Of a DNA stretch of 64,000 nucleotides, positions 1,269 through 60,710 are shown in pieces. This DNA comes from Thunnus maccoyii (taxonomy: Eukaryota > Chordata > Actinopteri > Scombriformes > Scombridae), in NCBI RefSeq assembly GCF_910596095.1, contig NC_056537.1, forward strand, positions 3,386,574-3,450,573. Reading direction: 5' to 3'. The notes below the pieces were generated by a model, which worked only from the letters and a program-made list of their open reading frames with translations, had not been told where the DNA came from and did not search any database. Positions within the stretch are counted from its first letter, which is position 1, and each line of letters starts with the position of its first letter. The position numbers and the translations under genes were made by a program.

Positions 1269-2477
1269 CATGAGGGCGGCCTGGTCTCCGCTCTTCTCTG
1301 GGGCGGGACAGTGTTCGGCCATGTAGGCCTCCTTCGCCACGACAAGTTCAGCTTTCTCCTGCTCGATCCAGTTGGCAGCGATCTGAAGGATCAGACTCTG
1401 CGGGGGGGGGAAACAACAACAGGGAAACAACATCTCAGAACATGTTATTTTCTAACTCTGTAACATTGGGTTGAATAAGTGATTTAAAGCTCAACACTGA
1501 GTTTTTTTAAAGCTAATCTTTTTCAGGAAAGGTCTTGGAATCACCTTCTGGCTTCAGCTAGATGCCCTACAGCACTATATACGTTACATCTGTCGCATTG
1601 CTCATAGAACTATTTTTATCTGTGTGGTCCCTGTTAAAAATTCACTATACTCGCCGCCTTCACCGAGGAGCTGCAGATTGTTCAAAATGCTTTAACAAAG
1701 ACAAAGAGTCACATTATTATTGTTGGTTTCTCTCTATTGGCTGTTGGTTTTACAGTTTACAAATCAATATAAAATGTTGGTTATTACTGTCAGGATCTAC
1801 GTGATGAAGCTCCTGAGAACATTTCTGAATTGTTGCGTCCATTTAGTAACTTAAAGTGTCTCAGATCAGCCAACCAGAGTCGTAACTTTGGAATAATTCA
1901 CCTTTTACTGTTAAATTATCCAGCTCAACAGAGATGTTTTTTAAAACTTTATTTTATTTCTGCATTATAACCATTACATCATCTGTTTCCGTAAACATAA
2001 ATCTTGTTATTTTCATGTTTGCTTGTTGCTTTTGATGTGTGAAACACTCTGTAATGTTTGTGATATATAAATAAATCTTAAATTTACTTAAATAAACAAA
2101 TAAAATAACACATAAACTTTTATTCATGCACCTTTTATTGTGATAGAAATCAATATGTTTAGCTGTTGGTTTACCTTCAGATGATGCCTGCGGCTGTTAG
2201 TCATCTTTTTCCTGTTTAGGAGGAAGTTGTGTCAAATCAACATGTGATATTCATATAGATCATTTTACATTTAGCCAGTATGTATTCATCCAGTATATTG
2301 AAATTAAGCAGATTTCTGTCCTTGTTTCAGGATAATATTATAAAATACTGAAGAAAAATATAAATCTTTTCACCATTATTGCTTTTTTTACACATATTTT
2401 CAGGTAATTGTGAGATTATGTGCTTGTAAACATTATATTTCAGGTGAGATTTAATCAGAGAAAACTTACTCGGACAT
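1269..2477 (-). CDS. tnni2: Troponin I, fast skeletal type, copy 1 (TnI-1), partial: exons 2-4 only
   Basis: Inhibitory subunit of the troponin complex of striated-muscle thin filaments. Visible coding exons, read right to left: exon 2 at 2470-2496 (ATG at 2477-2475, coding 8 nt), exon 3 at 2175-2211 (37 nt) and exon 4 at 1269-1397 (129 nt). They join in frame to 58 residues starting MSEKKMTNSRRHHLK, then SLILQIAANWIEQEK and ending SGDQAALM. Acceptors end in CAG; donors are GTAAGT, GTAAAC and GTGAGA. This is the N-terminal troponin C-binding helix region of fast troponin I. Exon 3 is 3 nt shorter than in copies 2-4, removing one residue before KKMT. Exons 5-7 are not found between 1 and 1268, which is mostly a mobile element, so the rest of the gene lies beyond the left edge. 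The noncoding first exon and promoter are at 3638-3840. Confidence 0.93.
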
Positions 2478-3637
2478 CTTGGCGGCGGTTCACAACCTGC
2501 ATGAAAAAAAACCACATTGAAGGAAGGAGACATTTTTAGTCTTTTTGACCCCTGCTGAGCACCGTAGTCGTTCACATCATGACTTCAGCGTGAGGTTCTG
2601 TGAGATCAGCATGTTCTGCTCCTGCCGATGGAGATGGATGGACGAGAATATTTGTGCTGTAACGTGATCTGAGGCCACAGCTGAAGAGCAGCGACGTCGA
2701 CTGAACTAAACTGGGACGGTCCGGATCGGGTGTCTCTTCTCGAAGGCTTTACGACCAGCGTGAAGAGTTGATTTAAAAAAAAAAAACTTCTCCAGCGGAA
2801 TATTATAAAGCAAAATATCAGATCCACGTTTGATTTAGTGTCATCTCTTAATGAAGATCTTAATCAAGTTCCCAGTCAAGATCCAGATTGTCTTTAATAG
2901 TTTAAGTGAGCTTTTTGTTTGAAAGTGTTAAATTTAACAGCTTAAAAAGTTGTTTAACTGTGTTGTTTTTCTGAGTTTCATTCAACGAGGGTAAGGGATT
3001 TAAATTTACAACTTATAACACTAAAAATAGAAGAAATAATGGCCAAGAATCCATATCCATATTAATTAAATGGTTAATTAAGCACTCGAGAGTCTTTAAA
3101 TCTGAGTATTATTGTCCCATAGTGTAAAATAAGCTTTAAAGGTGAATATTGTCTCGTCTGCTGTAGCTGGAAACAGCAGAAAGGATGTTCTCAGTCAAAA
3201 AAAAAACATGTTTTGTTAAATTTTTTGATGCAAACCAGGCCATCACATATGAATCATGTACAGAAAGAAGATCCTGACTGTGGTATTTTAGTTTAAAGGT
3301 TCTACTGAATCACTTTCTGACACTGAGCTGCAAACAGCTTCAGGACCATAAAACATAGCGCAGCTCTGCTGAACAGCTCACATAAATTAAAGTCTGTCAC
3401 ATAAATAAAAGTCTGTCAGGAAAAGATCGAATATCACTGGCAAACATGTAGAAAGTGAGTTCAGGATGTCAGGATGTCAAAGGAGTAACAAACTACAATC
3501 TAAAGGATGATTTTTTTAGAAACAGAGTCTGGAAATCTTTTTCTTTTCTTTTCTTTTCGTTTTCGTTTTCGCAGATGAAATAAAAGATGCTGATCTCAGA
3601 GAGGCTCAAAGAGGCTGGAAAAAAGAAGATTTCTCAC

Positions 3638-3713
3638 CTGTTGCGAGGAGGAAGAAGAAGAAGAAGAAGAGCGCAAATCACACTTGGTGGAAGAAAAGGA
3701 GACACTGCCAAAG
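3638..3713 (-). other. TnI-1 noncoding exon 1 (5' UTR)
   Basis: A splice donor (CAACAG|GTGAGA) ends the exon at 3638. The upper end is estimated at about 28 bp below the TATA box, so it is uncertain by about 10 bp. On the transcript strand the exon contains a run of CTT triplets (plus strand 3649-3670, GAAGAAGAAG). TnI-2 has a similar pyrimidine run in its exon 1. The ATG-bearing exon 2 follows after a 1.1-kb intron. Confidence 0.65.
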
Positions 3714-3740
3714 CCACAGACAGTGAAATATGAAAAAGGG

Positions 3741-3840
3741 TATATATGCTGGATTGTCATGTCTCAGCAAAATGCTCAGATCCTCTTTATGGAAGTGGAT
3801 TCCCGGTCAGACCAATGGGCTGACGAGCTCCTGAAATACA
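3741..3840 (-). promoter_or_regulatory. TnI-1 promoter: TATA, MEF2-like site, CCAAT box and conserved distal block
   Basis: A TATATATA box lies at 3741-3747, an A/T-rich MEF2-like block at 3782-3792 (CCTCTTTATGG on the plus strand) and a CCAAT motif at 3812-3816 (ATTGG on the gene strand). Next to it is a conserved GAGCTCCTGAAATAC stretch (plus strand). The order and spacing recur at all five genes. A (GT)n repeat at 3897-3952 bounds the module on its distal side. Confidence 0.8.
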
Positions 3841-3896
3841 CCCGGCCCAGCCCCGATCTGCAGACAGCCCTCCCGGATCTGATGCAGATTCACTGT

Positions 3897-3906
3897 ATGT
3901 GTGTGT

Positions 3907-3947
<41 letters not shown>

Positions 3948-3952
3948 TGTGT
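3897..3952. repeat. (GT)n microsatellite
   Basis: About 56 bp of GT with two GA interruptions. It lies just upstream of the TnI-1 promoter module and is potentially polymorphic. Confidence 0.95.
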
Positions 3953-5509: not shown

Positions 5510-8413
5510 TTAGGAAGTCTCAAACATCTTCTTCCTGTCAGCCTTATCCTCAATGTTCTTACGCCAGTCGCCGACCGCCTCTGTTGGCTGAAGAGATGCA
5601 GATTCGTTAATACAAAGACTCTTTTGTGACAAAACCTAAGAACTTACACATCTTTTCAAAGAGTTTCTGTGTTTTTCCTTCATTCCATTAATGTATAAAG
5701 GTATAAAAAGGTATATAAGGTATAAAAATAAACCTGCAGTCACTTAAAACTGCTTTAGAAACAATAATATATCACACAATAATGTCTGTCATGTAATTAA
5801 GCGATCTGATGCTGTGAACATTAACAATACTTCAAACTTCATACTTCAAATTTTCTAGAAAGCACTGAAATGTTTTTACTGGCAGGTTTTTAAACTTGTC
5901 TTAAGAAAATGAGGCTGTAACACCGGCTCCTTCAGAGAGTGTTGCAATGTGGGTTGTTTGTAGCCTTAATGTCGCTAAGCTAGCAAGTTTCATGAGTCTG
6001 TTTATAGTGAGTCTGTTAGGCTGTGTTCACATTACAGGCCTCAGATCCGTGATCCAGATATTAGTGATTAATGTATATATATATTATTACATTATAGATA
6101 TTAGTGACATGTATCTGGATCCGATGTGCAGATTTGCAAAGATTAAACTGAAGTGTGAGCTGCATGTGAACTAGGGATGTGCAAAGGGCCTAGTATTTGT
6201 ATTTGTATCTGTATTTGTTGAGGCAGCAAAATTATTTGTATTTGTATTCGAATAAAAGTGGAAATAAGCTTAAAAATCCTGTTTTTGTTTTCATTACGCT
6301 TTTAATTTTAGAAAATTTAAGCGTTAAGTGTTCATGAAGCGTGTGTCAGTAGTTCAGCTTTATCTCTGGGGAACACTCCCTAAATCTGGGAGTAATGTCC
6401 AAATTAGGAAATGTGCGTCATGTAGCAGGTGGATGTGACTCCCTTCATTAAGACCTGCTGATAGATGTAACAGCGGAGCAGAGGAGAGTGACTGAGATAC
6501 ATGGTTTATTTTTCTTCCCGAAAACAAATAATTTTTAAAATATTTGTATGAAACAAATATTCGGGGAAAAAACCCTATTTGTGCTTTGCCGAATAACATA
6601 TTTGTATTCAGGCACACCCCTAATGTGAACAGGAATAATAACAATAACGTCATCTGTGCTGAACAGTCAAATCATAATGGCGTGTTTATGTTATGATGTG
6701 TTCGCGTTCGGTTACGATAAATTCCTTCCAGTTTGGCTTGAATAGAAGAAGCTTCTCCATAAATATCCAACAGATTTGAAACTTCCTCGTCTCTCCGTCG
6801 ACTTTCCTGCTTTCACCATATCGAACGTTATTTTCTGTGCTGCTTTTGGTTGGAGAGAGTTTAATTGAAATAACTTATTTATATTTCAAGCATTATTATT
6901 ATCAAGCTTAGGACCAACTGTCTTCATGCTGCTTCTGAACCTCCAGGTCAGGAAAATACCAAACAGTTGGACTGCTGGTTGCACTGGTTGCACTGGTTGA
7001 ATTCCTGACATTTCTTTTTTTATTAAATGTTAACGTTTGACATCAACACCTCTAGTTCCTGCTGCTGTCACATGACCCTTTGTTCATCATGGAAGGAATC
7101 ATGTGACAGCAGTCTCAACAGTCTTTTAGTCTGAGCTGATTTTAAGCTTTGTGATCAGTTTTCTGGACTCGTTCCTCACCTCCTCTTTGACCTCCTTCTT
7201 GACTTGCTTCAGGTTGGCCCTCAGGTCCATGGTCACCTTGTGTTTGCCACCCAGCAGAGCCTGCAGCATGGCGTCAGCAGACATACGCACCTTCTTCAGG
7301 GCTGGTTTCTTCACGCCAGCCAGCTCAACCACCTTCAGCTTCAGATCCTCAATCTGGTCACAGAGAAACATCATGTGATAGCATGTAATGGCATTTCTGT
7401 CTTTTACACTCATATTATTGCTAAATCTTTTGCCAAAAATGACAGAAACTGCTCCCTACAGGACTGGTTTTCATCAGGAGATCATACTGGCACCAATAAA
7501 AACCTGCTCAAGACAGCACAAGGAGAGAAACTCTATCAGAAGTCTTTTTAGTCGCTTATCGGTTAAAACATCAACCGAGTTTAGGTTCTTCATCTAATAG
7601 AAAAAAAAAGCAACCTTTGTCTTTGAGTTCTAGAGGTTCTGAGTGGTAAAAAAAGATATTTCGTTGTTGCTCTCTCGTTGAATTTTGTTGTTCATTTCCA
7701 ATTAAAACAAATTCCCAGATTAGAGTAACAATCAAACTCTAATCATCAATGCCTTAATGGATCAATATGCTCATCAGATTTAACGGAAATCTGCTCAACA
7801 AGATGTATGTGTGTAGAGTAGAGCTGCAACAATTACTCAAATAATCAATAGTTGATCTATTTTATAATCGACGTTTTCAACGTTCTTTAAGCTAAAAAGC
7901 CAAATATTTGCTGGTTGAAGCTTCTTGACTGTTGATCAGACAAAACAAGACATTTGAAGACATCAACATGGACTCTTAAGAAATTAACTGATTAATTGAT
8001 TATTTAAATAATCAGTAATTGCAGCTGTTTTGGATTGTTGGTTGGACAAACCATCTCCTTGCACTGACATTTCTGCCATTTTTAGCTGAATAAGTAATCA
8101 GTAATTAAAATAATCATTAGTTGCAGCTCTAGTGAGCAAAATCCAGAACTGAGAAAGAACTGAATCAAATGTTCACATTAAAACATCTTTGTTACTCATG
8201 AAGACAGATGAGTCGATGTGTGTTTGAGATATATTCACTTATTTGACTTCAGTATTAAAAACAATCGGGTCAGTTAATTTTACCAGGAAGAAAAATACCT
8301 GTTGGTAATTAATAGGTATTTTATCTATTAATCAATTATCAGTCAGTTTCACAGTTTTAGTCAGTGGTGGAAGACGATCCTTTACTGAAGTATCAACAGT
8401 GCAATATATACAG

Positions 8414-8454: not shown

Positions 8455-11400
8455 ATAAATACTCCATTACAACTAAAATCCTGCGTTGAAAATGTCACTA
8501 AAATTAAATTATGTTAAGTATCAAAAGAAAAAGTGAGTTTATACAATTATAAACTGTATTATTAACTACTTTATAAACTGTTGGTTGGTTTAATCTGCAA
8601 CAGTGCATCATATTTTACAGTAGCGGAAAGTAACTAAATACATTTACTCAAATACTGTAATTAAGTACAATTTTGCAGTACTTGTACTTTACTTGAGTAT
8701 TTCCATGTGATGCTACTTTCTACATTTCAGAGGGAAATATTGTACTTTCTACTCCACTACATTTATTTGACAGCTTTAGTTACTTTTCAGATGAAGATTT
8801 GACACAATGGATAATATAACAAGCTTTTAAAATACAACACATTGTTAAAGATGAAACCAGTGGTTTCCAACCTTTTTGGCTTTTGACGTCTTACAAAAAG
8901 CAGTGTGTAGTCGGGGTCACATTTCACATGTCTATGAGTTGTTAACAGCTCCACCAAATAGTGATTTTTCCCTCTAAACTTCTCACATGCTTTCATTTCA
9001 ATAAATGTTCAAATGATCCAATATTTCAGCAAAAATCAAAGATTAGAGAAAAAGTCCAAAAACTGAAAACAGATTTGTGTATCAGAACTTTGTTTTTTCT
9101 TCTTTCCTCTCCCATTAATCATCTCACGACCCCTCAGATTTATCTGCTGACCCTTTGGAGGGGCCCGACCCCTAGGTTGGGAACCACTGGACTAAACTAG
9201 CTAACTGTATATAAAGTAGTGTAAACTAGCTCCACCTCCAGCAGCTACAACAGTAACATGCTGCTCTAACACTGATGCTTCACTATTAATAATCTAATGA
9301 TGTCATATATAATAATATATCAGTCAGAGGGACCAAACCACTACTTTTACTGCAATACTTTAACTACATCAAGCTCATAATACTTATGTACTTTTACTGC
9401 AATATTTTAACTACATCAAGCTCATAAATAATAAATTTTAATCTGTGAAGTTTAAGCTGTAATAAATGTATTGGAGTAAAAGTATAAAGTAGCATTAAAT
9501 GGAAGTACAGGACAGTAAATACTTGAGTAAATATACTTCACTGGTTATAGTTTCAACATAAACTCTTCCTCACCTCTTTGTCACTCTTCTTCACTTTGAC
9601 CTCGGCGTCGTACCTCGTCTCATCGATCTTGTCGATAGCCTGATAGATCTTCTTGCAGACTTCCTGTTTACAAATAAACAAACACAAACACTTTTTTCTC
9701 AGCTGTTTATTAGTCACATACAAACAGAGAAAACCCAGTTAGGATCATTTTTTAAGGTTATTAAGACTTGTTTAAATCACTGAAATTAAATTTTTTTATT
9801 AGATTATTTGGTCTTTAGGAAATATTTATAGATCTTAAATCTTTTGTCTTTATTTATTTTATCCAAAAACAACAAAATGAACATAATAAAAACACAACTT
9901 CCCCCATATAATGAAGTCAAGTTTTATATTATCTGTTTTATCTCAGTTGAGGCAAATTCTTTATTAACAAGATGAGATTACTTTAATCTAACAGATGTTG
10001 ACATGTATCTCACATCTGTTAAAAATCAGTGCATGTGACCAGATTCATTTTTTGGCCTCTACTGGTTTTCTTATCTGCTTGTCTTTTCTATATATCACAC
10101 CTCAAAGTGCAGGATTTCCTTCTTTATTCAGGATACGAGGAATAATCGCGTCAGGATCAATGTTAAATCTGTCTCCTGATTTTTGTTGTCATGTTTGCAA
10201 TAAGAAAAAAAAACAGTTTTTACAGTAACTGATTGAAACATGTTGTTTAAGTGTTTTATGTCCCAAAAAGAAAAAGCAACATTAAAATACTTCACATTTT
10301 TTGCCTGGAGACAGTGAAATATAAACCTGCAGGATAAAAACAGGGTCTCACCAGGAGGGCGGCCTGGTCTCCGCTGAGGTCGGGTTTGGGGCAGTGCTCG
10401 GACATGTAGGCCGCCTTCGTCACCTCGAGATCCTTCTTCTCCTGCTCGATCCATCCGGCGGCGATCTGCAGCATCAAACTCTGCAGGGAGATAAAAAAAA
10501 AACAGTTAAAGGTGAAAGCGTTTCGACTAACAACAACAACACCGACAACCACGAGGTTTTGTTCTCACCTTCAGATGATGCCTGCGGCTGGACGTCATTT
10601 TCTTTCCGCTGTTAGATAAAAATTAGAACGTCATCATCCGTTCATATCGTTTCTTAAAGAACAGCTCAACATTTTAGGAAATATATTCACTCTCAGATTA
10701 GAGAGGTATTGATCTTCTCATCTGTGAGTTAAACAAGTGAGATCAAACATGTTTATTAGTGAGATTTTCAGTTTTCAGTCTTTATGCTAAGCTAAGCTAA
10801 GCTAAGCTAACCAGCTGTAACAGACAGGTATCAATTAAAGCTGCAACTTTAGTCGATTAATTGACTAAAAAGTTTGATTTTTTTTCAAGCAAAAATGTTA
10901 AAAAGTCACTGGTTTTGCTGCTTTTATTCATCATGTTTGACAGTAAATTAAATATCTTTTGGTTTTGGACCGTTGATTCATCTCTTGAGCTTTGGCGAAG
11001 GATAACAGGCATTTTTCACTATTTTCTCATGATTCAGAGTTAAATTAAATCATTGGAAAAAAAAATAAAATCAGCAAATTTAATCAATAATGAAAATAAT
11101 CGTGCAGCTCTGGGATTCATCTTCTCATCAGCTCTCTGCCAGAAAAGTATTTATTTCCCCAAAATCTCTAAATATTACTTTAAAACAGGCCAAAAAAAAA
11201 GTATTTATTGATTTATTCTCCAGTTTCCAGACGATCATTTATAGATAAATAAAGAGACTTTTTTCATACAACCAGTAGATGTGAATCATAAATAACAACA
11301 TACAAACACTCACAGCATGTAAATACAGTGAGGAGTGTAAAAACAAAATTGAGATAAAACTCACTGATATCACATTGAAGTTTGTCTTTTACTACTAATA

Positions 11401-13142
11401 ATTATCCGTATGATCCTCCTGCTTTAATATATTTCTCCTCAGGCATACCAGCAGCATGTACAGCTGCTGTCATCTGAGGCTAAATGTTTGACCTTCAAAC
11501 TCTCTTTACATCTGTTCGGATCAGTTTAGAAACATTTCAGCCGCACTGACGGCAGCAACAACACGTCGATCCAGACTGAGATATCTCAACAAGCACGACG
11601 ACGGATCAACGTCATCGACTTGATCCTCTGACATTTCAGCAGGTCAAAATGTTCATTTGATGACAGGAAACCTCGAAAACTAAACCTAAACCTTTTCTGC
11701 TCCCTGAAAAAATGTATTGATTGTTTCTTCAGATGATTTTCATACAATTTTATACTTTTTTTATTCCTATTTTCTGATATTTCTTAATGTCAGACATCAA
11801 ACTCCAGTCTCTGTCTCCATAAAAGATGTTATATTTTATAAATACATTAAAATGTTATTAATAAACCGGAGCTCAGTGCGATTTAAGTTGATTTATTTTG
11901 GGTGTGAAACTGATGTAACTATAAATCCTTCAGAAGGTTCCTGTAAATAACTACGTAGCATGTATGTTGCCGGGTGAGTTTATTTATCTGTTTATGTGTT
12001 TACAGCGTGTTTTATATTATAAAGAGCTGCAACTAACGATTATGTTCATCACTGATTAATCTGTCGACCGTTTTCTTTTTAATTGATTAGTTGTTTGGTC
12101 CGTAAAATTTCAGAAAATGGTGAAAAATGTTGACACAATTCAAATATATTCAGTTTACTGTCATAGAGACTAAAGAAACCAGAAAATATTCACATTTAAG
12201 AAGCTGAAATCAGAGAATTTGGACTTTTTCTTCTGAAAAAAAATGACTGAAAACGATTAATCTGTTATTAAAATAGCTGGGGATCAATTTAATAGTTGTC
12301 AGCTAATTGATTAATTGTTGCAGTTCTCTATATATAAATATTATATATTTGAATTAGTATATTTAAGTCAATAAATTAACTATTCACTAATTTAATTATA
12401 GCGTAAATAGAGACTGTTAAATCTGCACAATCAATCAATGAGCTGAAATTATTTTCTAGTGTAATCATGAAACTGTGAAAAATGTGACATTTGTCTAGTT
12501 TAAAAACATAAATAATAATAATATAATATATATAAGAAGTGAATAATGAATTTACTTTGATTGATTTAATTGGAGACGTTATTTCAGTGAGGTTCTTCTT
12601 ATGAACTCAACGAAACTAAACTCTAATTAAAGACTGAACTTTGTCTTTATTTTCCACATAACTGGCACAAAATTACACTGTAGACAAAATTATAGATTAT
12701 AACGCCGAAATCAATCATTCCTCTTTAAAATTTGGGATCACTAGATGTTTAAAGAAAAGGATTACATATTTTATTCATTTACTTCTTTTTCCTGCCAGGA
12801 CAGACTTTTGATCATCCCTGTGTTTCTCCCTGATCAGTCATCAATTAACACTGAATTAGACACATTATTATAGACATTATTTTGTGACGCACACTGATGT
12901 TTAAATCCAAAACTTCCTACACAAAGATTAGAGAAATGACAGACCTGTAAAATAAAGTTTAGCCTGTTCAGACGAGTCTAAGATGTCTTAAAAATGTCAT
13001 TTAAAGGGCTGTTACAACTGTTTCAAAAGAATAAAATAAAATATGATGCTGGTGATCAGATCAGTTTTTGTTACACTACTGTCTTTTTTTTATGACATCA
13101 GAGAAGAAGAAGAAGAAGAAGAAGATGTACTCACTCAGACAT
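5510..13142 (-). CDS. tnni2: Troponin I, fast skeletal type, copy 2 (TnI-2), complete, 172 aa
   Basis: Inhibitory subunit of troponin; it holds actomyosin off until troponin C binds calcium. Coding exons: 13135-13142 (exon 2 runs to 13167 with 5' UTR), 10569-10608, 10352-10480, 9574-9663, 7180-7353 and 5510-5587, stop TAA at 5512-5510. All junctions are GT-AG and in frame. Residues 1-16 are [16 protein letters not shown]. Residues 17-59 form the troponin C-binding helix ([18 protein letters not shown]). Residues 60-89 start the coiled-coil arm with troponin T ([18 protein letters not shown]). Residues 90-147 carry the inhibitory and switch regions ([20 protein letters not shown], then [16 protein letters not shown]). 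The C terminus is [21 protein letters not shown]. Human fast troponin I has the longer SGMEGRKK where this protein has ADRKK. A poly(A) signal (AATAAA) lies at 5232-5227. Mobile elements fill intron 5, including 8.62-9.54 kb. Confidence 0.96.
6172..6622. mobile_element. hAT-type MITE with perfect 8-bp target duplication
   Basis: The 451-bp element starts TAGGGATGTGCAAA; its other end, complemented, reads TAGGGGTGTGCCTG. It is flanked by an identical ATGTGAAC at 6164-6171 and 6623-6630. An 8-bp duplication with short TA-G-rich inverted ends is typical of the hAT superfamily. It lies in intron 6 of TnI-2, inside what looks like an older repeat. Confidence 0.8.
7820..8131. mobile_element. Short inverted-repeat element, GAGCTGCAAC family, copy 1
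   Basis: The element begins AGAGCTGCAACAATTA and ends in the complement of AGAGCTGCAACTAATGATTA. The AT-rich centre contains AATCAGTAATTG-type inverted motifs. Related copies lie at 10.84, 12.02, 26.74 and 31.78 kb. Confidence 0.65.
8365..8600. mobile_element. Fragment of the GTGGTGGAAGA-type element
   Basis: CAGTGGTGGAAGACGATCC followed by AATACTCCATTACAACTAAAA resembles positions 1-90. An (AT)n(GT)n run at 8420-8455 has expanded inside it. Confidence 0.55.
8618..9543. mobile_element. Nonautonomous element of the AAGTAACTAAATACATTTAC family
   Basis: The left end is CAGTAGCGGAAAGTAACTAA; the right end, complemented, is CAGTGAAGTATATTTACTCA. I know this as an abundant fish MITE type, probably hAT-related. 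It is interrupted by the nested element 8858-9189 and lies in intron 5 of TnI-2. Confidence 0.7.
8858..9189. mobile_element. Nested hAT-like MITE (CAGTGGTT termini)
   Basis: The start CAGTGGTTTCCAACC and the complemented end CAGTGGTTCCCAACC are terminal inverted repeats. The flanks GATGAAAC and GACTAAAC match at 6 of 8 positions, consistent with an aged 8-bp target duplication. Confidence 0.65.
10837..11113. mobile_element. GAGCTGCAAC-family element, copy 2
   Basis: AAAGCTGCAACTTTAGTCG at the left and ATAATCGTGCAGCTC at the right are inverted ends. The centre is degenerate. It lies in intron 2 of TnI-2. Confidence 0.5.
12023..12328. mobile_element. GAGCTGCAAC-family element, copy 3
   Basis: It begins AGAGCTGCAACTAACGATTA and ends TTAATTGTTGCAGTTCT, an inverted pair. 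The interior has the CACATTTAAGAAGCTGAAAT segment also seen in the copy at 31.78 kb. Confidence 0.6.
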
Positions 13143-14736: not shown

Positions 14737-14832
14737 TATATAAGGTGTGATGTGCACACTCAGCAGAAAAGTCAACCCTATTTATGGTAGCAGAGCCACA
14801 TCAGACCAATCGGTCGACAGGCTCCAGAAATA
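14737..14832 (-). promoter_or_regulatory. TnI-2 promoter: TATA, MEF2-like site, CCAAT box and conserved distal block
   Basis: A TATATA box lies at 14737-14743. CTATTTATGG at 14778-14787 is the best match to a MEF2 site among the five promoters. CCAAT is at 14806-14810, followed by the conserved block (GGCTCCAGAAATAC, plus strand, one or two changes from the other copies). The TATA-to-CCAAT offset is 69 bp. Confidence 0.8.
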
Positions 14833-17961: not shown

Positions 17962-20900
17962 TTAAGAAGTCTCAAACATCTTCTTCCTGTCAGCTTTGTC
18001 CTCAATGTTCTTACGCCAGTCGCCGACGGCCTCGGCACCCTGCGGGACAGACGGGTTCAGGTCACGTGTCCGACATCAGGTGGATATGTAACAGTAGAAA
18101 GTAAATATGTCGCTGTGGCTCACCTCCTCTTTGACCTCCTTCTTGACCTGCTTCAGGTTGGCCCTCAGGTCCATGGTCACCTTGTGTTTTCCACCCAGCA
18201 GAGCCTGCAGCATGGCGTCAGCAGACATACGCACCTTCTTCAGGGCGGGTTTCTTCACGCCAGCCAGCTCAACCACCTTCAGCTTCAGCTCTGCGATCTT
18301 AAAATGGCAGACGGAGCGTTAAAGTCCAAACACAGCTGAGAGATACCTGCCTTTACCAAAATCTGGTTTAGCCCCGTTTTGACCAAAAGTTACAGGAACC
18401 CGAGGAACTGAACTAGAAACTAAAAGTTCCTGTTTGTGTTTCCACCACATCTGAAGAACCTGGTAGATCGTGCAGATTAGACCCGTTAGGAATAAAAAAC
18501 ATAACAGCAGTGCTTTTATTTCTGCTTTAGAACGAAACAACATGAAACAATCAGAAAATAAAATTAATTTCTCTCATTCACCGGCTTTGTTTTCACTACC
18601 GCCGCTCCCTCTCTTCATTCACTCTCTAGCTCGCTCTACCACCTCTGCTCTCTCTCTCTCTTTTGGTCGGTAAGCCGACAGCAAAGTCTAACTTTACTTT
18701 TAAGACTGACAAACAAAGAGAAATGTCTTCTCCTCATCCTAAATCCATACTGGAGCACTTCTTTGTTTTATGAATGAAACAGTACACAATCAGCGACGGT
18801 CAGCCCTGCAAACCCCGCCCCCCACGCTCCTGTACTTTTCCGGTGGAAACGCCGGTAGATGAACTGAGTTCCTCAAAAGGTTCTTAGTCGTCGGGGAAAG
18901 TTCCTGCAGTGGAAACGCAGCCATAGACGCACCAAACTAAATAAAAGGAACAATCTAACTGATCTGGTTGTGCTTTGAACTTTGACTTTGGTTTCAGGCA
19001 CTCCCGTCCCCCTCCGATGTTCTTTACTTCTACTTTTTTTAATTTACTACCCTATGTGAAGCACATTGTAACATGGTTTTTTGAAAAATAAAGATTATTA
19101 TTACATTGAGACTCCAAGACTTTTCAGAAAGAGAAAAGTAATTACAGTTTACTGCTCAAAGAGAAAATAACAAAATCATTCCATGATTTGTAATTTAATT
19201 TGTTGAGTTCAATTTGTTGTTTGTTGTATTAGATTGATAATTTGTACATTCAAGAAAACAAGTTATTTTCAGTGTTGATGCTTGTTGTCTCTGACTCTTT
19301 TGACATCATGCTATTTTCTACGAATTTTTAAAAATAATCCCCAAAATTGAGATTCATATCTTTTACTTCTGAGCCAAGATTTGTTACCCAAGAAAACACT
19401 TTTAGAGCTGCAGCTTCAATGTTGCAGCAGACTGTGCTGAATATTGTCTTTTGTAATTTATATCCAAAATATTTATGTAACTATTCAATTAGAAAACTTC
19501 CCCTCTGCACCCAAATATGTCCTGTTCTCATGGATGACCTTCTTCTCTAGAGGATCATCATCTAATTACACATCATCTAAATCATAGTACAAAGATAAAT
19601 CTTACAACAAATCTTTAGTTTCAGTTACTCTTTGACATGTAATACCTGGTAAACAGCATCTATAACTCAGAGATGTCTTTACCTCTTTGTCTGTCTTTTC
19701 CACTTTGGCCGCAGCGTCGTATCTGTCCTCATCGATTTTGTCAAGGGCCTGGTGCAGCTTTTTGCAGATTTCCTGTTATTATATATATAAAAAAAGAGAA
19801 AGGTTTCTCTCACAAAATCAACTCTTCACAGTCTCAGTTCCTCCTCTTTAAAGGACAAGTTCATACTGACCATTAGAAGATCCCTTCATAATGACCTTAC
19901 AATGGAAGTGATGGAGGACAAAATCCACAGTCCTCCTTCTGTGCAAAAAAATGTATTTAAAAGTTTATCTGAAGCTAATATGAAGCTTCAGCGTCCAAAT
20001 GAGTCAAATCAAGTAGATATCTTTCAACTTTACAGTCTTTTTAGTGCCAAAGTTCCTCTTTTTGTTACTATACTTCCACCTGCAGCTCAACAGGGAAACA
20101 CTGTCCGAGGAAACACAAAGAGGGAATTTGATGCTAAAAAGACTGTAAATGTGTCAGATATCCACTTGATATGACTAACTCAGACTGCTGAAGCTGAATA
20201 GAAGCTTCACAGAGACTTTTAAATGACTGTGTGGACACACTGTGGATTTTGGCCTCCATCACTTCCATTGAAAGCACATTTGAAGGATCTTTTAATATCC
20301 AGTATGAACAGGAGGAATGATTACAGCGAGGAAAACCTCTTTCACTGTTCATATGGACACTTGACTGCTGGTTTAAGACACACTTGAATGTTTTTGCATT
20401 TTATATCTGCCTCCTTGGATTGTACATACGTTTTATTGTATTTTAACATTCTACTGTTCTCTAAAAGACGAAGAAGACAGACTTGAATATTGCGAACTAT
20501 TCCTTTAAGACTCAAAGTGAAGTTTTTATCTGTGTTTTTTTCTGTGATTTTTTTACCACCAGAGACGCCTGGTCTCCGCTCAGGTCGGGGGCGGGGCAGT
20601 TCTCTTCCATGTGAGTTTCTTTAGCAGCCGCAATGTCGGCAGCTTCCTGCTCCAGCCAGCCGGCAGCGATCTGCAGAATCAAACTCTGCGGGACGAAGAC
20701 AAAGAGAGTTAAAGACCCCCTTCGCTCAAAAATGTTTGAGCGTCTCTGTGCAGAATGATGTTTGTGCAGAGTTTGTTTTCACATTCATCTGCTGAAAGTG
20801 GAAAGTTTCTCTGAGCTCGTTGAAAATCTGATTTTAAAGGGCGGGCCTATGAAAAGGATTTGTGACATCACAACTAGTTTGGAGCCAATTGTGGTCCAAT

Positions 20901-24243: not shown

Positions 24244-24335
24244 TATATATGCGTTTGGACGGGGGGTTTGGAGGTTCCTCTTTATGGACATGAGGGAGTC
24301 TTGAGACAAACCAGGCCAATGAGCTCCTGAAATAC
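24244..24335 (-). promoter_or_regulatory. TnI-3 promoter: TATA, MEF2-like site, CCAAT box and conserved distal block
   Basis: TATATAT lies at 24244-24250, CCTCTTTATGG at 24277-24287 and CCAAT at 24316-24320, run directly into GAGCTCCTGAAATACC. The spacer of about 8 bp between CCAAT and the conserved block in the other copies is missing here, so the two motifs are fused. The TATA-to-CCAAT offset stays at 72 bp. Confidence 0.78.
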
Positions 24336-36673: not shown

Positions 36674-36765
36674 GTATATATATGAGGGTTCAGATATGGA
36701 TATGGAGCTCCTGTTTATGGAAATGCCGGATCCTCAGACCAATCGGCCAACAAGCTCCTGAAATA
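36674..36765 (-). promoter_or_regulatory. TnI-4 promoter: TATA, MEF2-like site, CCAAT box and conserved distal block
   Basis: TATATATATA lies at 36674-36683, CTGTTTATGG at 36711-36720, CCAAT at 36739-36743 and AAGCTCCTGAAATAT immediately after. The order matches the other four copies; the TATA-to-CCAAT offset is 65 bp. Confidence 0.8.
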
Positions 36766-48086: not shown

Positions 48087-48278
48087 GTTAGCTTGCCAGG
48101 CTGCACTCTGTGTCTACAGTCGTGTATTTCCAAAGTACAGATTTGCATTCATTGCATTATAAATCAGATTAAGGTTCTTGACGTTAGCTTGCCAGGCTAC
48201 ACTCTGTGTCTACAGTAGTGTATTTCCAAAGTACAGATTTGCATTCATTGCATTATAAATCAGATTAAGGTTCTTGAC
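48087..48278. repeat. 96-bp tandem duplication
   Basis: GTTAGCTTGCCAGGCT starts at 48087 and again at 48183. The two 96-bp units differ at only two positions (GGCTGCA/GGCTACA and CAGTCGTG/CAGTAGTG), indicating a recent duplication. Confidence 0.93.
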
Positions 48279-49004: not shown

Positions 49005-52000
49005 TTAACTATCAAACATCTTCTTCCTATCAGACTTGTCTTCAATGTTCTTACGCCAGTCTCCCACATCGCGCAGCTGCTTGTCCTGTGAACACAGACA
49101 ATATTTATTTTAGTTCAGATGTAAAATGTAAAATGATAAAATACAAAAAAAGACGGAAATTGCCAAGAGCCAAATGGTGATAAGTTCCAATGGACCAGTG
49201 TAAACTCTCAACCAGTCATACTAAGACAAAACTACGACTCTATCAAACTGGTGCCTGTTAGCTGCTACTGAAGACCAATGTTCATGGTAGGTGTAAATAT
49301 AATCCAGCTACATAAAGTACATTAGAGTCAGACACTATTCAGACACATTCTTCTACTATTCTATAGCTTTGTTTATGGTGATCTAGCCAGTAGTTATTCA
49401 ACCATGAAACTGCTGGATGAACAAATTACAAACCCCACCGATATCGCCATCCTTAATTTCAATTTATTAAAAATTGGATTCATACTGTAAATTTAGCCAT
49501 TGTTTCTATGGGTTTATGAATGTACTATTAAAGTAATTACTGGGATCTGGGAACCAGTGAACATTTTTCAAACATGAGCAGTCAGCGGTTTATCCGCAAT
49601 ATTTAAACACCTTTATTTGGAGGTCAAACTTCAAGTGAGAACACCTGAAATTTTATGTGATACGATTGGGTAATAAGTAAACTTCCAAATAAGTTAACTG
49701 AACTTGGTTTAACACTGGGTATTGAATGTCAATACTTTAAAATGTGTCTGCAGCACAGAGTATCAAAAGTGCCAAAACTTGGCATCAAATGTCTGGTCAG
49801 ATTCAGAATCTTGTTGACTTCTTTGATCAGATGGTTTCTGATTTAAATCATAATTAAGGTCAGTTTGAGATTAAATTTTATTTAGACAAAGTTCTTGTGT
49901 TTAGACAAGATTTAACATTTGAGAACTGGAAAACAAGGTATTGAAAAAAGTATTTTTTATTTGTGTTGAAATAAGGTTCATTATTGTTTTTTCTCGTTAT
50001 TATTGCTAATTTTTCTTGCTCTCTCACACGTCTTTTTAGCAATGTTGCAGTGTTCATAGATTTCACCACCAAACTTGGCGAGTACAATGAGGCCAAACCC
50101 ACAAAAATAAGATCTAAGTTGTAACCAACCAGAATTATCCCTAAGCCCTGCCTGCTAACGTACGGGAGCCGACAACGGCCGTGTTTGAAATTATTTTTTT
50201 TAATGCTGCTATTTTAGAGATCACAAGTTAATTATTTCGTTATTTCAAGAAAACAAGTGTTTTTATCACGAGATAACGAGATAATCTCTGACCCTTCTAC
50301 TGTTTGGACTCCCAGGCTGAGAGGTCATATTTTCTTGGATTTCTAACACTATGTATTCTTTATTTTCAAGCCATATCCACACATGGATACAGTATGCTGT
50401 ATCTACTTGACAACAGAGGTGAGAGTGCCTGAATGAGTCAGCCATTCAAAACCTCAGGATAGTAAATAAATAAACATAACATGCATAGTGTACTCCATTG
50501 GCTATCATGATGGTTCAGTTATTATTCATCAATAATTAAGGCCAAAAATAACACCAAATATTCATTAATTTGGAAATCAATAGCGTTTGGGAGCCTCTGA
50601 GCAGCACTGTTCCGAAAGTCAACTTTTGGTAGCGTAGCTCCTTTAAGGAACAGCTCAGTGCGTAGTGAGTGTGCTCTCAAGAGAGAGTGAAAGAGTCTGT
50701 GTGTGACAGTGAGGATGCAGCTATCGGAGCAACCCGCCTACCATCCAAGAGCAGGCTGAGCAGGCAGAAAGCGGGAGAGTTTCTGCCGAAAAAAAGCACA
50801 GAGACCCGGGAGACATGAGAGCAGCTGCTCGCTAGCAGCTCTGTGTGTTTACAGCAGAGAGCAGGAGGGAGGACAGACGTCTCACTCTTCTGCTCTGCTG
50901 CTGCTGCAGACTTTCAGTTTATAATTGTAGCGTCTGTAGTCTGACTAAGTATCAATAACACATGTAGTATTTTACAAATTGGAGTTTTTTATTTGATGAA
51001 CGTGGGCACTGATATGTGAAAGACGCCGCCACCCCAGACTAGTCAACACAGGGGAAACACTGATAAAGCTAATGAAAATATGATGCATATTACAAAACAA
51101 ATTTTGTCATGGAGACACACACTAGTTTAATTATTTTGTTAGTATAAAAGATTCTCCTGTGTAATCTGACTTCTGGCTATAGGACAGTGTAATTAGTGAG
51201 ATGTGCCACCGCTCTTCAAAGTCCCTCCATGAGTGCTCTTTTGTGACAGCAATTTCGTAATAACAATTATGAGAGCTCTATTATAGATGTAGCATTGGTT
51301 CAACATAATGGACAATGCATGAAGTAATGACATGCATTGATTAGGTCGTTATTTCAAGATAACAACGCTCATTTTCTCAAAATAACAAAATAACTAATAA
51401 TAATAAATAATTCGTGATTTTGAGATAATGGCATTTTTTTTAAAAAAGCATGGCCATTCTCGCCTTCCATACTAATGGGACAGAAAATAGAGAAATAAAC
51501 TTTCCCTTTGACGTTAAAGCTGCTATAAAGGAAATATAAAAAACAAGATGAAACGAGTTCAGACTGAAAACTAGACGAATCAGGTAGCAGCTCACCTCTT
51601 CTTTCACCTCCTTCTTGACCTGCTTCAGGTTGGCTCTCAGGTCCATGTTGACTGTGTGCTTGGAGCCCAGCAGAGCTTTCAGCATAGCATCAGCAGACAT
51701 ACGCACTTTCTTCAGACGGGGTCTCTTGAACTTTCCCCTCAGGTCCACAATCTTGATGTTGAGGTCTCTGACCTTTAGGAGGATTCAAGACAGAGAGAAC
51801 AATTATAGACTTTAATTAATGGTCAAATTATGAGTCATGAAAGACCAGTGACACATTCTGTGGTCAGCTAAAGATCATTAGTTTGTGTTCTCAAACACGT
51901 GTTCTCGATATTTGTCTGGTGGAACAATAGGATGATCATTTTTACAATTTATTGGTCTCTTTTTAAATTTTTTAACAGAATTTCAAATGGCTGGATTATG

Positions 52001-54388
52001 TTTGAATTCATGGACAGCTACACTTAGCTTTTAAACAAGGTTGTATAACAATAACAGGTTCACAATTCCTCCAATACTTCTCAAATCTTAAAACAACAAT
52101 CAGGAGCCCAAATGAACATTATACATGTTTTTATTGCTGTAATCATTCCTCCTGTTCATACTGACCATTAGAAGATCCCTTCATAATGACCTTATAATGG
52201 AAGTGATGGAGGACAAAATCCACAGTCCTCCTTCTGTGCAAAAATGTATTTAAAAGTTTATCTGACGCTAATATGAAGCTTCAGCGTCCAAATGAGTCAA
52301 ATCAAGGAGATATCTTTCAACCTTACAGTCTTTTTAGTGCCAAAGTCCCTCTTTTTGTTACTATACTTCCACCTGCAGCTCAACAGGGAATCACTGTCTG
52401 AGGAAACACAAAGAGGGAATTTGATGCTAAATGTGTCAGATATCCACTTGATATGACTAATTCAGACTGATGAAGCTGAATATAAGCTTCACAGAGACTT
52501 TTAAATGACTGTGTGGACACACTGTGGATTTTGGCCTCCATCACTTCCATTGAAAGCACATTTGAAGGATCTTTTAATATCCAGTATGAACAGGAGGAAT
52601 GATTACAGCGAGGAAAACCTCTTTCACTGTTCATATGAACACCTGACTTGTTTTAAGATGGACATGAAAAATTGTGAACCTCTCCTTTAAGTGCTAGTTA
52701 CAATAACCTTGATGCATTTTGATGTTCCAGGATGTAAAATCACAGATAGATAGATAGATACACAGATAGATGATTGTGATAGATCACTCCATCTTCCATA
52801 CAGAAGACTTTCTGACACAAAATAGTTTCTAAATTAGATTTTTTTTCCTTGTTTGTTGATTAAAATACCAGCCACAGCCACAAAATCCATCTACAATCAC
52901 CTATATAATACAATGGCAAACACAAATACAATTATTATGGCAGATATTAATAGAAATACTGTTTTTGTGTAGTTGACATACTCAAATGTAAAAGTACAAA
53001 TCAATAGAAAAACACACTAAACCAGCTTTTTTTGAGTTTTTCTCAATGCATTTTCAAGTTCATATCACAACTAAATGTACAAATGTTGATCATAGTGATC
53101 ACTTCATATTAATCTAGATACAAAGAGTATCTGCACATTGAATCAGAGCTCCCTTTACTTTATTATTCACATTTATAAATAAAGTAAAGGGTACTCCTTC
53201 TATCTACAGTTGGTTAATTGTTTTCATCCCACTGAGGTTTTGTGGATGTGCACACAACTACACTTCATATTAACCTCACATACAAAAGGTAAAATAAATA
53301 TATTAAACAGATCTGAGGAAGAACTTCACCTCACCTCATTGAGAACCAGGTTCAGTTTAAACTCAATGCTGTATCTCTCCTCTTCACTGATGTCAATCTC
53401 CTTATGAAGCTTCTGGCAGAGTTCCTGAAGAGAAAACAGTATTTTAGAGTTCAGCAGAAAATGTATTTTTCACCTAAACTCACAAAAGAGCCAAAACTCG
53501 GTTATTTCTTAAAAAGTAATATATGACAAGAGTATAATTGATTTTTGGGAGTAAATAACTGTGAGAACATGTAACTCTTGTCCATGAAATGTATTGGTAG
53601 AAGTAGACTTTGACTCCCACATATAACCGCGACAGCAGTTTAACCCGGACCGACCCGGGACAGTCTGTCTCACCACAAGCTCGTCCTTGGAGTACGGCAG
53701 CTCCAGAGGAGGAATTTTGTCTGCCAGGAACTTCTCTCTCTCGTCGGCCTTCGCTGTTGCTTCAGCTTCCAGCAGATTATTAGCCACCACCAGCATACAG
53801 CTCTGAGGATGACATCATCACACAATTTTAAGTTTTTTTCTACAAACAATTTATTTGTAGAAAATTCATATTTATTAATTTCTTACCTTCAGAGTGTGCT
53901 TACGCCTTGCAGACAGTCTTTTCCTGCAGACAGAAACACAACAACGTTAATCAGGCTGAGTGGAATTAAAGTAGATTTGAGCCATTATGTTGTAAATATG
54001 TAAATCTGTTATTATGATCAGTGGTGGAATGTAACAACTAATATACATTTACTCAATATTCTACTTAAGTACAATTTTATTGTACTTTACTTGAGTATTT
54101 TCATATGATGCTACTTTATACTTCCATAACTACTGTGGTTTTGTCATGTATCAGCTGCACAATCCTCTAAAACTGTTATTTTAATAATGGAAAATGTTTA
54201 TAAACTTAAAACAAAACTTTTTTTTTTTTTTTTTAAGAAATAGAGCTTAAAACTAAAATGCTTAATATGCATATCTGATAAGACATTTATGAAACATCCT
54301 TCTATCTAACAGACAAATAAACATGAAAAAAAACATAATCTGTTGTTTTATGACGATATAATAAACTCATTACTCACTCGTCAGCCAT
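49005..54388 (-). CDS. Troponin I, divergent fast-like copy 5 (TnI-5), complete, 174 aa
   Basis: Troponin inhibitory subunit. Coding exons: 54378-54388 (exon 2 runs to 54413), 53887-53923, 53674-53802, 53335-53424, 51596-51772 and 49005-49085, stop TAA at 49007-49005. The start codon is in a good context (CTACCATGG). The N terminus MADEKRLSARRKHTLK and exon 4 (SCMLVVANNLLEAEATAKAD, then IPPLELPYSKDELV) differ strongly from copies 1-4. Exon 5 encodes LCQKLHKEIDISEEERYSIE. Exon 6 keeps [20 protein letters not shown], one residue longer than in copies 2-4, then [20 protein letters not shown]. Exon 7 is [20 protein letters not shown], ending KKMFDS. The LRDVGDWRKN and RGKFKRP motifs are typical of vertebrate troponin I generally. 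Intron 1 is about 6 kb. I cannot assign it firmly to a named paralogue. It has no cardiac-type N-terminal extension. Confidence 0.93.
50164..51468. mobile_element. Likely 1.3-kb inverted-repeat element in intron 6 of TnI-5
   Basis: The left end GGGAGCCGACAACGGCCGTG and the right end, complemented GGAAGGCGAGAATGGCCATG, agree at 15 of 20 positions. Just inside, GTTATTTCAAGA and AAGATAACGAG-type motifs occur near both ends. A GC-rich segment at 50600-51065 appears to be a separate insertion. Confidence 0.5.
52130..52660. mobile_element. Foldback MITE, copy 3 of 3
   Basis: GCTGTAATCATTCCTCCTGT at 52136 and CAGGAGGAATGATTACAGC ending near 52609 are the inverted arms. It is very close in sequence to copy 2. 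It lies in intron 5 of TnI-5. Confidence 0.78.
54019..54190. mobile_element. Fragment of the AAGTAACTAAATACATTTAC family
   Basis: CAGTGGTGGAATGTAACAAC followed by TTGTACTTTACTTGAGTATT matches the left end of 8618-9543. Only one end is present. It lies in intron 2 of TnI-5. Confidence 0.65.
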
Positions 54389-58429: not shown

Positions 58430-58780
58430 GCGTGGCTCTAGTGATGGCAATGTTGGTCGGATCACCACTTTGGTCCGGACTGAAATGTTGTCTATTGGAT
58501 GGATTGCCACGAAATTAGGTAAATGTCCTTGTCTGGAAAAAAAATAACTTTTAGCTTTTCCTCTAGCACCATCCTCAGGTCATGATTTTAATTAGTCCAG
58601 TACTTTTGTTTGACCAAATACCTGCATAACTAATGAGACTGCCATCAGCTTCAGCTGCACTTTGTGTTTACAGCTAATAAGTAAATGTTAGCATGTTAAC
58701 ACACCAAACTAAGATGGTGAATATGGTCAACATAACACCTGTTTAACATTAGCAAGATCATTGTGAGCACATTAACATGT
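58430..58780. repeat. Interspersed repeat (GGATGGATTGC type), second copy
   Basis: TCTATTGGATGGATTGCCAC and TTTTCCTCTAGCACCATCCTC resemble 55250-55360, followed by GTTAGCATG-type sequence. Confidence 0.5.
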
Positions 58781-60532
58781 AGCTCACAGAGCTGCCAGCG
58801 TGACACTCACAGTGTTAATGAACAGTTTTTATTGGAACTACTTTATAGAGAATTGTACTTTTTCATTGCTTTGAGGCTCACAAAGGAAATTCCACTCATT
58901 TCAATTTACTGGGGTAAAGGCAGAAATATCACCTTGCAGATAGGTTGATAGATGGTTATATACCACTGGTAAACTGACGCTATAAGTGCCAGCCTTGAGG
59001 CCACTTCCAGATGAAGTTGGAGGCCAGACAGTTGCTGGCTGAGCTGCTTGTAATGTTTAGGAGCTGCGATGGAACAGCGGATTAAGACTCTATTCCTGGA
59101 GCCACAGCTGTTCTTACGTCTTCATTATGGAGCAAAAAAATGACACCAGGCTCATCTTAAAAGAAAAGACGTCTGACAACCACTGCAGGCATCCTAAAGC
59201 GCATAGCTGGCCCGGGAACAAATGGCTGTCATCTGTAAACCAATAACAGGCAGGGCTGACAATGTATTTTAGGACCCTCGAAACACCCGAAACCGGGAGG
59301 ACTTGACAACATGTTGCTGTGGGGATGGAATAATATCTGCAGGGTTAAATTTGGGTGCTGATTTTTGTCTTAGGTAGGTGTGTGTGTTATGGAGAAGGAT
59401 TGTCTCCAGAGGGAGGGTGGAAAAGGTTCACAGTAACCCAACACACAAGAACATCCTTCGGACAGCCAAGACGTTAGAGCATATCGCTAAAATAACTCAC
59501 TGCAGGGCTGACCTCATATGTATGTACAGTTAATCCGCTTTCCACTGACAAAAAAAAAGGTGTTGTTCAGGTTTTGAAATTACAGAAAACAAAAAAAAAG
59601 AGCCAAAAACTGAAACAAAATCAGTCGTAAAAGCTCCTGCGTCTTGTTTTGTAAAGGATAAAATGAAGCTTCACTGTTGCTTAAACATACCAAAGCTTTT
59701 AGAAAAGTTTAAATTTGGTGACTGGGGATTAAACTCGAGTGTAGAGTGACGACAGCAGAGAGGTTTGGCAGCCGCGGTAGATTAGTCCAGGTTTTCCTCC
59801 GAACCCCACAGCGCTGACAGGAGGATAAACATTCGCGGATCAATTTTCAAGTTCATGCCTTGTAGTGGTGTTACCTTTCAGTGCGCCACATCACCAGACC
59901 ATATATTAGACCGCACGCTCATGTCAAAACAATTCTCAACTGAGACAAAAAACTCTTTTAACTTAGGAAATCCAGAAACAACACTCAATATACAACAATA
60001 AAAGGTATATTAATAAAAACTGGATAAAAACCAAAAATCTCCACATCACAAGTCCACCTTGTGTTACACTAAAAGTATATTAATGTCATTTAATACCAAT
60101 TAAACATGACATGTGTGCATTACTAAAATTCTCATTCATTAACACTTAATTCATAACAAAGAACTCCAAAACAACATGAAAACCAGAGAAACAAACAACC
60201 AATGATCAAACTAATTGACATACTGATGAAATATTCAGACGAATGCCTGAAACTGCCAATGTCGATCTACATCATCTCGTAACCGCATGCATCAGATATT
60301 TAGTAAAAGCTCTGATTTTAAGCTCTTTCATTTAAAATTAAAACCTCTTTTCTATAACTTTCCACTAGCAGAATTATTATTTGAACAAACCAAACACAAT
60401 GTTTTCACAACCATACAGACAAGACAAAGACAAAGAACGAGCATGCAAACTAGCAAACGATCACATGAACATCTTATACTGACTTCATCTTCCAAACAGT
60501 AAAACAAAAAACTTCAGAGAAAGAGTCCCTAC

Positions 60533-60585
60533 CTTAACAGAGCAGAGTTGTCAGCTTGTTAGAGTCACAAAGACGCAGACTGAGT
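60533..60585 (-). other. TnI-5 noncoding exon 1 (5' UTR)
   Basis: The donor TGTTAAG|GTAGGG ends the exon at 60533. The start is inferred from the TATA box at 60612. Assignment to TnI-5 rests on the shared promoter layout and the lack of any other gene between here and exon 2, about 6.1 kb away. An RNA read across the junction would settle it. Confidence 0.6.
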
Positions 60586-60611
60586 CCCAGGCAGACGAAG
60601 TGTTAAGAAGG

Positions 60612-60710
60612 TATATATTGCAATCTCTGATAGCTCTCCAAATCCCTGAGTTTCTCTTTATGGAAGTGGATTACTAGTCAAACCAATGAGCTGGCAAGGT
60701 CATGAAATAC
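60612..60710 (-). promoter_or_regulatory. TnI-5 promoter: TATA, MEF2-like site, CCAAT box and conserved distal block
   Basis: TATATAT lies at 60612-60618, CTCTTTATGG at 60654-60663, CCAAT at 60683-60687 and GGTCATGAAATAC further out. The module is kept although the protein is the most divergent of the five. The TATA-to-CCAAT offset is 71 bp. Confidence 0.75.

What the first reader, a model, noticed from the sequence alone, without database searches (positions are those of the whole stretch)
1269..60710. Five co-oriented troponin I genes in one 60-kb tandem array
All five share exon boundaries and phases (coding parts 8/11, 37/40, 129, 90, 174/177, 78/81 nt), each with its own noncoding first exon. 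Seen directly: intact open frames, splice sites and stop codons in copies 2-5. Fish are known to have expanded fast-type troponin I genes. The inference is that several thin-filament isoforms are available to different fibre types or stages.
Basis: partly seen in the sequence, partly recalled or inferred. Interest (0 to 1): 0.75.

Follow-up and report, generated by a model that had tools for sequence, protein, structure and literature searches.

The report
Five fast-type troponin I genes
This stretch of what looks like fish DNA carries five troponin I muscle-regulation genes in a row, four of them complete and one cut off by the window edge, each with its own look-alike promoter; it is a known kind of gene cluster, with some unusual differences in the part that switches muscle off.

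Summary
On the minus strand lie five troponin I genes with one coding-exon plan and AG/GT junctions. Copies 2-5 are complete (172, 172, 172, 174 aa, no internal stop); copy 1 shows only coding exons 2-4 before the window's left edge. All five match Pfam Troponin; copies 2 and 5, the two searched, score best against solved fast skeletal troponin I. No sixth copy was seen. Beyond the finding: a shared ~53-nt upstream block followed by TATATAC lies above each gene and nowhere else in the window. Copies 2-4 lack one residue in the inhibitory peptide, copy 5 does not. Exon 6 of copies 2 and 3 is nearly identical, silent sites included, unlike their other exons; this suggests exon-limited gene conversion (family-wise p 0.017; moderate). 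The array is of a known kind: tandem TNNI2 expansions are reported in zebrafish (PMC9825255, passages). Fibre-type or stage use was not testable. Species and the sequence left of the window are unknown; the own-genome search did not complete.

The parts
3786..3838 (-). copy 1 shared promoter block (TATTTC...ATTGG...CCATAAA), TATATACC to 3739, proposed first-exon donor after 3638
2470..2477 (-). copy 1 coding exon 2 (8 nt)
2175..2211 (-). copy 1 coding exon 3 (37 nt)
1269..1397 (-). copy 1 coding exon 4 (129 nt); exons 5-7 not in window
14781..14832 (-). copy 2 shared promoter block; TATATACC to 14735, proposed first-exon donor after 14643
13135..13142 (-). copy 2 coding exon 2
10569..10608 (-). 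copy 2 coding exon 3 (40 nt)
10352..10480 (-). copy 2 coding exon 4
9574..9663 (-). copy 2 coding exon 5
7180..7353 (-). copy 2 coding exon 6 (inhibitory and switch regions); near-identical to copy 3 exon 6
5510..5587 (-). copy 2 coding exon 7 with stop
24281..24334 (-). copy 3 shared promoter block; TATATACC to 24242, proposed first-exon donor after 24153
21524..21531 (-). copy 3 coding exon 2
21351..21390 (-). copy 3 coding exon 3 (40 nt)
20557..20685 (-). copy 3 coding exon 4
19683..19772 (-). copy 3 coding exon 5
18124..18297 (-). copy 3 coding exon 6; near-identical to copy 2 exon 6
17962..18039 (-). copy 3 coding exon 7 with stop
36714..36765 (-). copy 4 shared promoter block; TATATACA to 36673, proposed first-exon donor after 36602
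34891..34898 (-). copy 4 coding exon 2
32740..32779 (-). copy 4 coding exon 3 (40 nt)
30175..30303 (-). copy 4 coding exon 4
29116..29205 (-). copy 4 coding exon 5
28112..28285 (-). copy 4 coding exon 6
27945..28022 (-). copy 4 coding exon 7 with stop
60657..60709 (-). copy 5 shared promoter block; TATATACC to 60610, proposed first-exon donor near 60533 (read by eye, GTAGGG)
54378..54388 (-). copy 5 coding exon 2 (11 nt)
53887..53923 (-). copy 5 coding exon 3 (37 nt)
53674..53802 (-). copy 5 coding exon 4
53335..53424 (-). copy 5 coding exon 5
51596..51772 (-). copy 5 coding exon 6 (177 nt, keeps the full-length inhibitory peptide)
49005..49085 (-). copy 5 coding exon 7 with stop (81 nt)

Best explanation
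This is a teleost-type tandem array of fast skeletal troponin I (TNNI2-like) genes: at least five, four complete in the window. Each is transcribed leftward from its own TATA promoter with a shared upstream block, and spliced to a troponin I of 172-174 residues. Each protein would sit in the troponin complex, hold actin-tropomyosin off at low calcium through the inhibitory and C-terminal regions, and release it when the switch region binds calcium-loaded troponin C. The copies arose by old tandem duplication and are kept by purifying selection. They differ most in the N-terminal half and in the inhibitory peptide, so they most likely give fast fibres several troponin I isoforms. Shown: gene anatomy, family, promoter sharing, selection pattern. 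Inferred: teleost origin, expression, isoform use, mechanism in the sarcomere.
For: Exon sets, splice sites and open frames. Pfam Troponin, E from 1.1e-45 to 1.1e-44 for copies 2-5 and 2e-7 for partial copy 1, all above the curated cut-off. Best solved match is fast skeletal TnI for copies 2 and 5, the two searched. dN/dS, computed, is 0.20 (copies 2-3), 0.22 (2-4), 0.20 (3-4), 0.29-0.37 (2, 3, 4 against 5) and 0.30 (1-2). A shared promoter block stands above each gene: 5 of the 10 pairs of copies align within it (1-5, 1-2, 1-4, 3-4, 2-4; E 1.7e-12 to 1.5e-4), so that every copy aligns with at least one other; the patterns match 5 times with 0 expected (they were written from these five sequences, so the counts describe rather than test). 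Literature: zebrafish has 14 TNNI genes including two series of tandem duplications, and TNNI2 tandem expansion was already reported (PMC9825255, passages). Crotonylated tnni2b.1, tnni2a.4 and tnni2b.2 were listed together in zebrafish embryos (PMC5827021, one passage). TnI mechanism: PMC9178916, passages.
Against: No RNA evidence. No fish TNNI sequence could be compared directly, so assignment to TNNI2 rather than the fish classes TNNI4 or TNNI5 rests on closeness to tetrapod fast TnI, and the margins are small for some copies (copy 4: 55% to recalled human TNNI2, 53% to recalled human TNNI1). Copy 5 is only 51-53% identical to copies 2-4 and 29% (17 of 58) to copy 1. Copy 1 could be a fragment. 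Five of the ten pairs of copies gave no blastn match in the promoter block, and the tightest form of the block is found only in copies 1 and 5.
Confidence: 0.9

Rival explanations
1. The array is mostly redundant: all copies are expressed together in the same fast fibres for dosage, with no isoform specialisation.
For: All five share the same upstream block and TATATAC; three tnni2 paralogues were listed together in zebrafish embryos (PMC5827021, one passage).
Against: Proteins differ by 17-28% among copies 2-4 and by about half from copy 5; copy 5 keeps a full-length inhibitory peptide that copies 2-4 lack. Upstream of exon 3, blastn found no similarity between copies apart from the block, the surroundings of exon 2 and a few short or repeat-like matches, so other control elements may differ.
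Confidence: 0.3
2. Some copies are decaying or already silent (copy 1 truncated, copy 5 drifting).
For: No exon 5 of copy 1 in the 1268 nt left of exon 4, while the other four have intron 4 of 249-969 nt. Copy 5 has the highest amino-acid divergence in exon 4 (pN 0.47-0.56 against copies 1-4).
Against: Copy 5 is fully open with all splice sites, keeps LRGKFKRP and the C-terminal motif and the promoter block. Copy 1's three exons are open with dN/dS about 0.3 against copy 2 and its promoter block is present.
Confidence: 0.15
3. The near-identity of exon 6 in copies 2 and 3 comes from selection on the DNA sequence itself or from chance, not from gene conversion.
For: With stricter tests the signal weakens: silent-codon runs give p 0.036 (mismatches allowed) and 0.12 (none allowed); same-amino-acid codons differ at 4 of 53 in exon 6 against 21 of 80 elsewhere, p 0.0067 before any correction for the comparisons made.
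Against: Copies 2-4 and 3-4 differ at 16 of 45 and 14 of 45 such codons in the same exon, so exon 6 is not constrained at silent sites in general; family-wise permutation p 0.017; all-site run test p 0.0002 (but it includes replacement sites, which are conserved in exon 6).
Confidence: 0.35

Closest known systems
Zebrafish TNNI2 tandem series (tnni2a.x, tnni2b.x)
   Same: Fast-type troponin I genes in tandem; reported in PMC9825255 (passages read), gene names seen in PMC5827021 (one passage)
   Different: No zebrafish sequence was at hand, so copy-by-copy orthology, the inhibitory-peptide deletion and the exon-6 similarity could not be compared
Chicken fast skeletal troponin I (PDB 1ytz chain I)
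   Same: Aligns along nearly the whole length of copies 2 and 5; same switch-region core MSADAML.ALLG.KH (MTADAML in copy 4) and C-terminal VGDWRKNIE
   Different: The 4 copies with exons 6 and 7 in the window lack three residues before RKKMF and read KKVR for RRVR; copies 2-4 also lack one residue in the inhibitory peptide and two before VGDW
Cardiac troponin I (TNNI3, e.g. PDB 8uww)
   Same: Same Troponin family, same mechanism
   Different: Lower score and a one-residue insertion relative to copies 2 and 5; its match starts at chain residue 40, the window copies have no such N-terminal extension

Membership tests
Troponin I (Pfam PF00992) | profile match above the curated cut-off | tested here: met
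   5 of 5 proteins, (copy 1 partial, 31.8 bits against 26.2). The Pfam model covers the Troponin family as a whole; troponin I is named by the solved matches
Troponin I | inhibitory peptide and switch region | tested here: met
   present in 4 of 4 copies that include exon 6; shortened by one residue in copies 2-4
TNNI2 (fast skeletal) | closer to fast than to cardiac TnI | tested here: met
   2 of 2 copies searched (2 and 5) against solved chains; 4 of 4 complete copies by identity to chicken fast (54-62%) and human cardiac TnI (47-51%); partial copy 1 is 41% and 35%
TNNI2 (fast skeletal) | nests with TNNI2 in a tree of TNNI1-5 including fish | tested here: inconclusive
   only four tetrapod references, two of them recalled, and no fish TNNI4/TNNI5; window copies form their own group
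TNNI2 locus | neighbours LSP1, PRR33, TNNT3, SYT8 (named in PMC9825255) | tested here: inconclusive
   no Pfam match above cut-off among 87 ORFs of 48 aa or more in 36.9-48.95 and 60.8-64 kb; short exons would be missed and the window may end before them
TNNI2 (fast skeletal) | expression in fast muscle | not testable with these tools
   no RNA data

The most novel reading that the evidence does not exclude
The array holds two functional grades of fast troponin I (a shortened, less basic inhibitory peptide in copies 2-4, a full-length and extra-basic one in copy 5), and exon-limited gene conversion keeps the calcium-switch exon alike between neighbours while the half that assembles with the other troponins diversifies: a modular way to vary assembly while holding the switch constant.
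Probability: 0.25. Interest if true: 0.5.

Novelty: new member of a known kind. Interest (0 to 1): 0.3.

Why it matters
Troponin I sets how strongly a thin filament is held off at rest. Mammals have three genes (PMC9825255, abstract); this window alone has at least five fast-type ones, with a natural one-residue deletion in a highly function-sensitive stretch. That gives a natural test of how much the inhibitory peptide can change, and a compact case for asking whether tandem copies with the same promoter block are used together or divided among fibres. As a gene cluster it is of a kind already reported for zebrafish.

Tried and rejected
Sixth copy or pseudogene: tblastn of the five proteins at E up to 10, both strands, gave only weak hits outside the models (the best, E 0.003, lies in the Lys/Glu-rich reading of a CT-rich tract at 34.1-34.4 kb; that run still had exon 3 of copies 2 and 3 one base off, corrected). 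Other genes: 10 of the 46 exon-free ORFs of 85 aa or more and 87 ORFs of 48 aa or more from two gaps (ORFs with one residue at 25% or more were left out) gave no Pfam match above cut-off; two sub-cutoff matches (PFF1_C, legume lectin) were disregarded. ORFs elsewhere in the window and short exons were not scanned. Rfam: none above gathering score. A first, looser pattern for the promoter (CATAAAGAGNNNNTGA) was unspecific: 20 matches against 11.4 expected.

My first tests for gene conversion overstated the case: a Nei-Gojobori count gave p 6e-6, but it counts multi-step codon paths and was chosen after seeing the data; searches are the fairer tests. A possible second case, exon 7 of copies 2 and 4, gave p 0.0089 and 0.059 (2 of 21 silent differences) and is not claimed. 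The ungapped exon bins for exons of unequal length (copy 5 exons 3, 6 and 7; copy 1 exon 3) are out of register and were not used. The 178-nt repeat 12138/31901 lies in different introns of copies 2 and 4 and was set aside as a dispersed repeat.

Paper searches used. In their listings I saw no paper on gene conversion between fish TNNI2 copies, and none holds the string kkpalkkvr; only open-licence papers are held, and the long lists were shown in part. PMC9825255 itself raises gene conversion, but for the N-terminal extensions of TNNI3 and TNNI5. Passages of PMC12730502 and PMC12539203 were read and not used. One search was a look-up of a paper that is not held.
Full report
OBSERVATION. The window has no N and is 64% A+T. 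The recognisable troponin stretches are on the minus strand; its two plus-strand word matches are chance-like, and tblastn on both strands found no plus-strand copy. Gene models were built from open frames bounded by AG and GT and checked by joint translation. Copies are numbered from the left, against the direction of transcription. Copies 2, 3 and 4 give 172 residues, copy 5 gives 174, each from an ATG to a stop without internal stop. Copy 1 has coding exons 2-4 only. In the other copies intron 4 is 249-969 nt, but the 1268 nt left of copy 1's exon 4 hold nothing like exon 5. Either its intron 4 is longer or the copy is incomplete; the window cannot tell.

IDENTITY. All five proteins match Pfam Troponin above the curated cut-off. 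Against solved structures, copy 2 and copy 5 score best with chicken fast skeletal troponin I, 168.7 and 190 bits, and lower with cardiac chains, at best 137.9 and 145.3. Copies 1, 3 and 4 were not searched there. Partial copy 1 does not discriminate (41% chicken fast, 35% cardiac, 41% TNNI1, 38% TNNI2, over 54-58 residues). In a small maximum-likelihood tree the window copies form one group apart from all four tetrapod references (support 97), so the TNNI2 label rests on similarity, not on nesting. That the source is a teleost is inferred from the gene family's known tandem expansion there; no species test was possible.

PROMOTERS. Comparing the upstream regions showed a block shared by the copies: copies 1 and 5 align over 66 columns at 82% (E 1.7e-12), copies 1 and 2 over 139 at 71% (E 8.6e-10), copies 3 and 4 over 92 at 74% (E 8.9e-7), copies 1 and 4 over 63 at 78% (E 1.6e-6), copies 2 and 4 over 35 at 86% (E 1.5e-4); the other five pairs gave no match there. 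The block reads TATTTC..GA.C..., a CCAAT box in 4 of 5 (ATTGG; GTTTG in copy 3), then CCATAAA, and 25-50 nt on TATATAC. Patterns written from it match five times in the window, each time above one of the five genes, with none expected in shuffles (since the patterns came from these sequences the counts describe rather than test). The tightest form occurs only in copies 1 and 5. A GTGAG donor follows in copies 1-4 and a GTAGGG in copy 5 (the latter read by eye). Which factors bind is not known; motif names are recalled.

HISTORY. Overall dS is 0.52 (copies 2-3), 0.74 (2-4), 0.90 (3-4), 0.96-1.30 (each of 2-4 against 5), and 0.59, 1.48, 0.87 and 1.53 for copy 1 against 2, 3, 4 and 5 over 58 codons. 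The duplications are therefore old, and within 120 nt of the exons the introns of the copies compared show no in-register similarity beyond the splice sites. Assembly of one locus several times would not give this. dN/dS of 0.20-0.37 between complete copies shows purifying selection.

EXON 6. Between copies 2 and 3, exon 6 differs silently at 4 of 53 same-amino-acid codons (M and W left out), but at 16 of 45 (2-4) and 14 of 45 (3-4); outside exon 6 copies 2 and 3 differ at 21 of 80. Of 38 silent variable codons common to the three copies, 13 of 16 in exon 6 group copies 2 and 3, against 7 of 22 elsewhere; the family-wise permutation p over five exons and three pairs is 0.017. The 96% identity ends within five bases of the exon (7175-7355 for an exon at 7180-7353). 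The simplest reading is a past gene conversion within the exon, the only stretch still similar enough to pair. The evidence is moderate: run tests on silent codons alone gave 0.036 and 0.12.

FUNCTION. Exon 6 encodes the inhibitory and switch regions. The fast and cardiac references read GKFKRP.LRRVR. Copies 2-4 read [11 protein letters not shown], one residue shorter; copy 5 reads GKFKRPRLKKVR. [quoted passage not shown] a review of cardiac troponin mutations). By counting K and R in this stretch, the references have six, copies 2-4 five and copy 5 seven: an inference is that copy 5 inhibits more strongly and copies 2-4 less. It is untested. Whether the short form is general in teleost fast TnI could not be checked; a text search for part of the peptide found no paper, which says little, since sequences are rarely in running text.

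KNOWN OR NEW. Tandem TNNI2 expansions in zebrafish, 14 TNNI genes in all with two tandem series, are in print (PMC9825255, outline and passages). The array is a new member of a known kind. The exon-6 mosaic and the two grades of inhibitory peptide are the parts I did not find described (searches; open-licence papers only).

Noticed in passing
17126-17562, 19859-20381, 52154-52663: Three copies of a dispersed repeat, 61-99% alike by segment: one downstream of copy 3's stop, one in copy 3's intron between exons 4 and 5, one in copy 5's intron between exons 5 and 6; probably a mobile element.
   Followed up: partly
42243-42625 and 61870-62255: About 390 columns of intergenic sequence 69% alike on the minus strand, probably an old dispersed repeat.
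   Followed up: no
105-303: Perfect 47-bp minisatellite, 4.2 copies.
   Followed up: no
33882-34627: CT-rich tract within copy 4's intron between coding exons 2 and 3; its minus strand reads as a Lys/Glu-rich frame that gives false troponin hits.
   Followed up: partly
41617-41961 (+): 115-aa open frame that resembles, from recall only, the tail of a fish non-LTR retrotransposon; no Pfam match.
   Followed up: partly
48086-48278: Two head-to-tail copies of a 96-bp unit, 98% alike, about 0.7 kb downstream of copy 5's stop.
   Followed up: no
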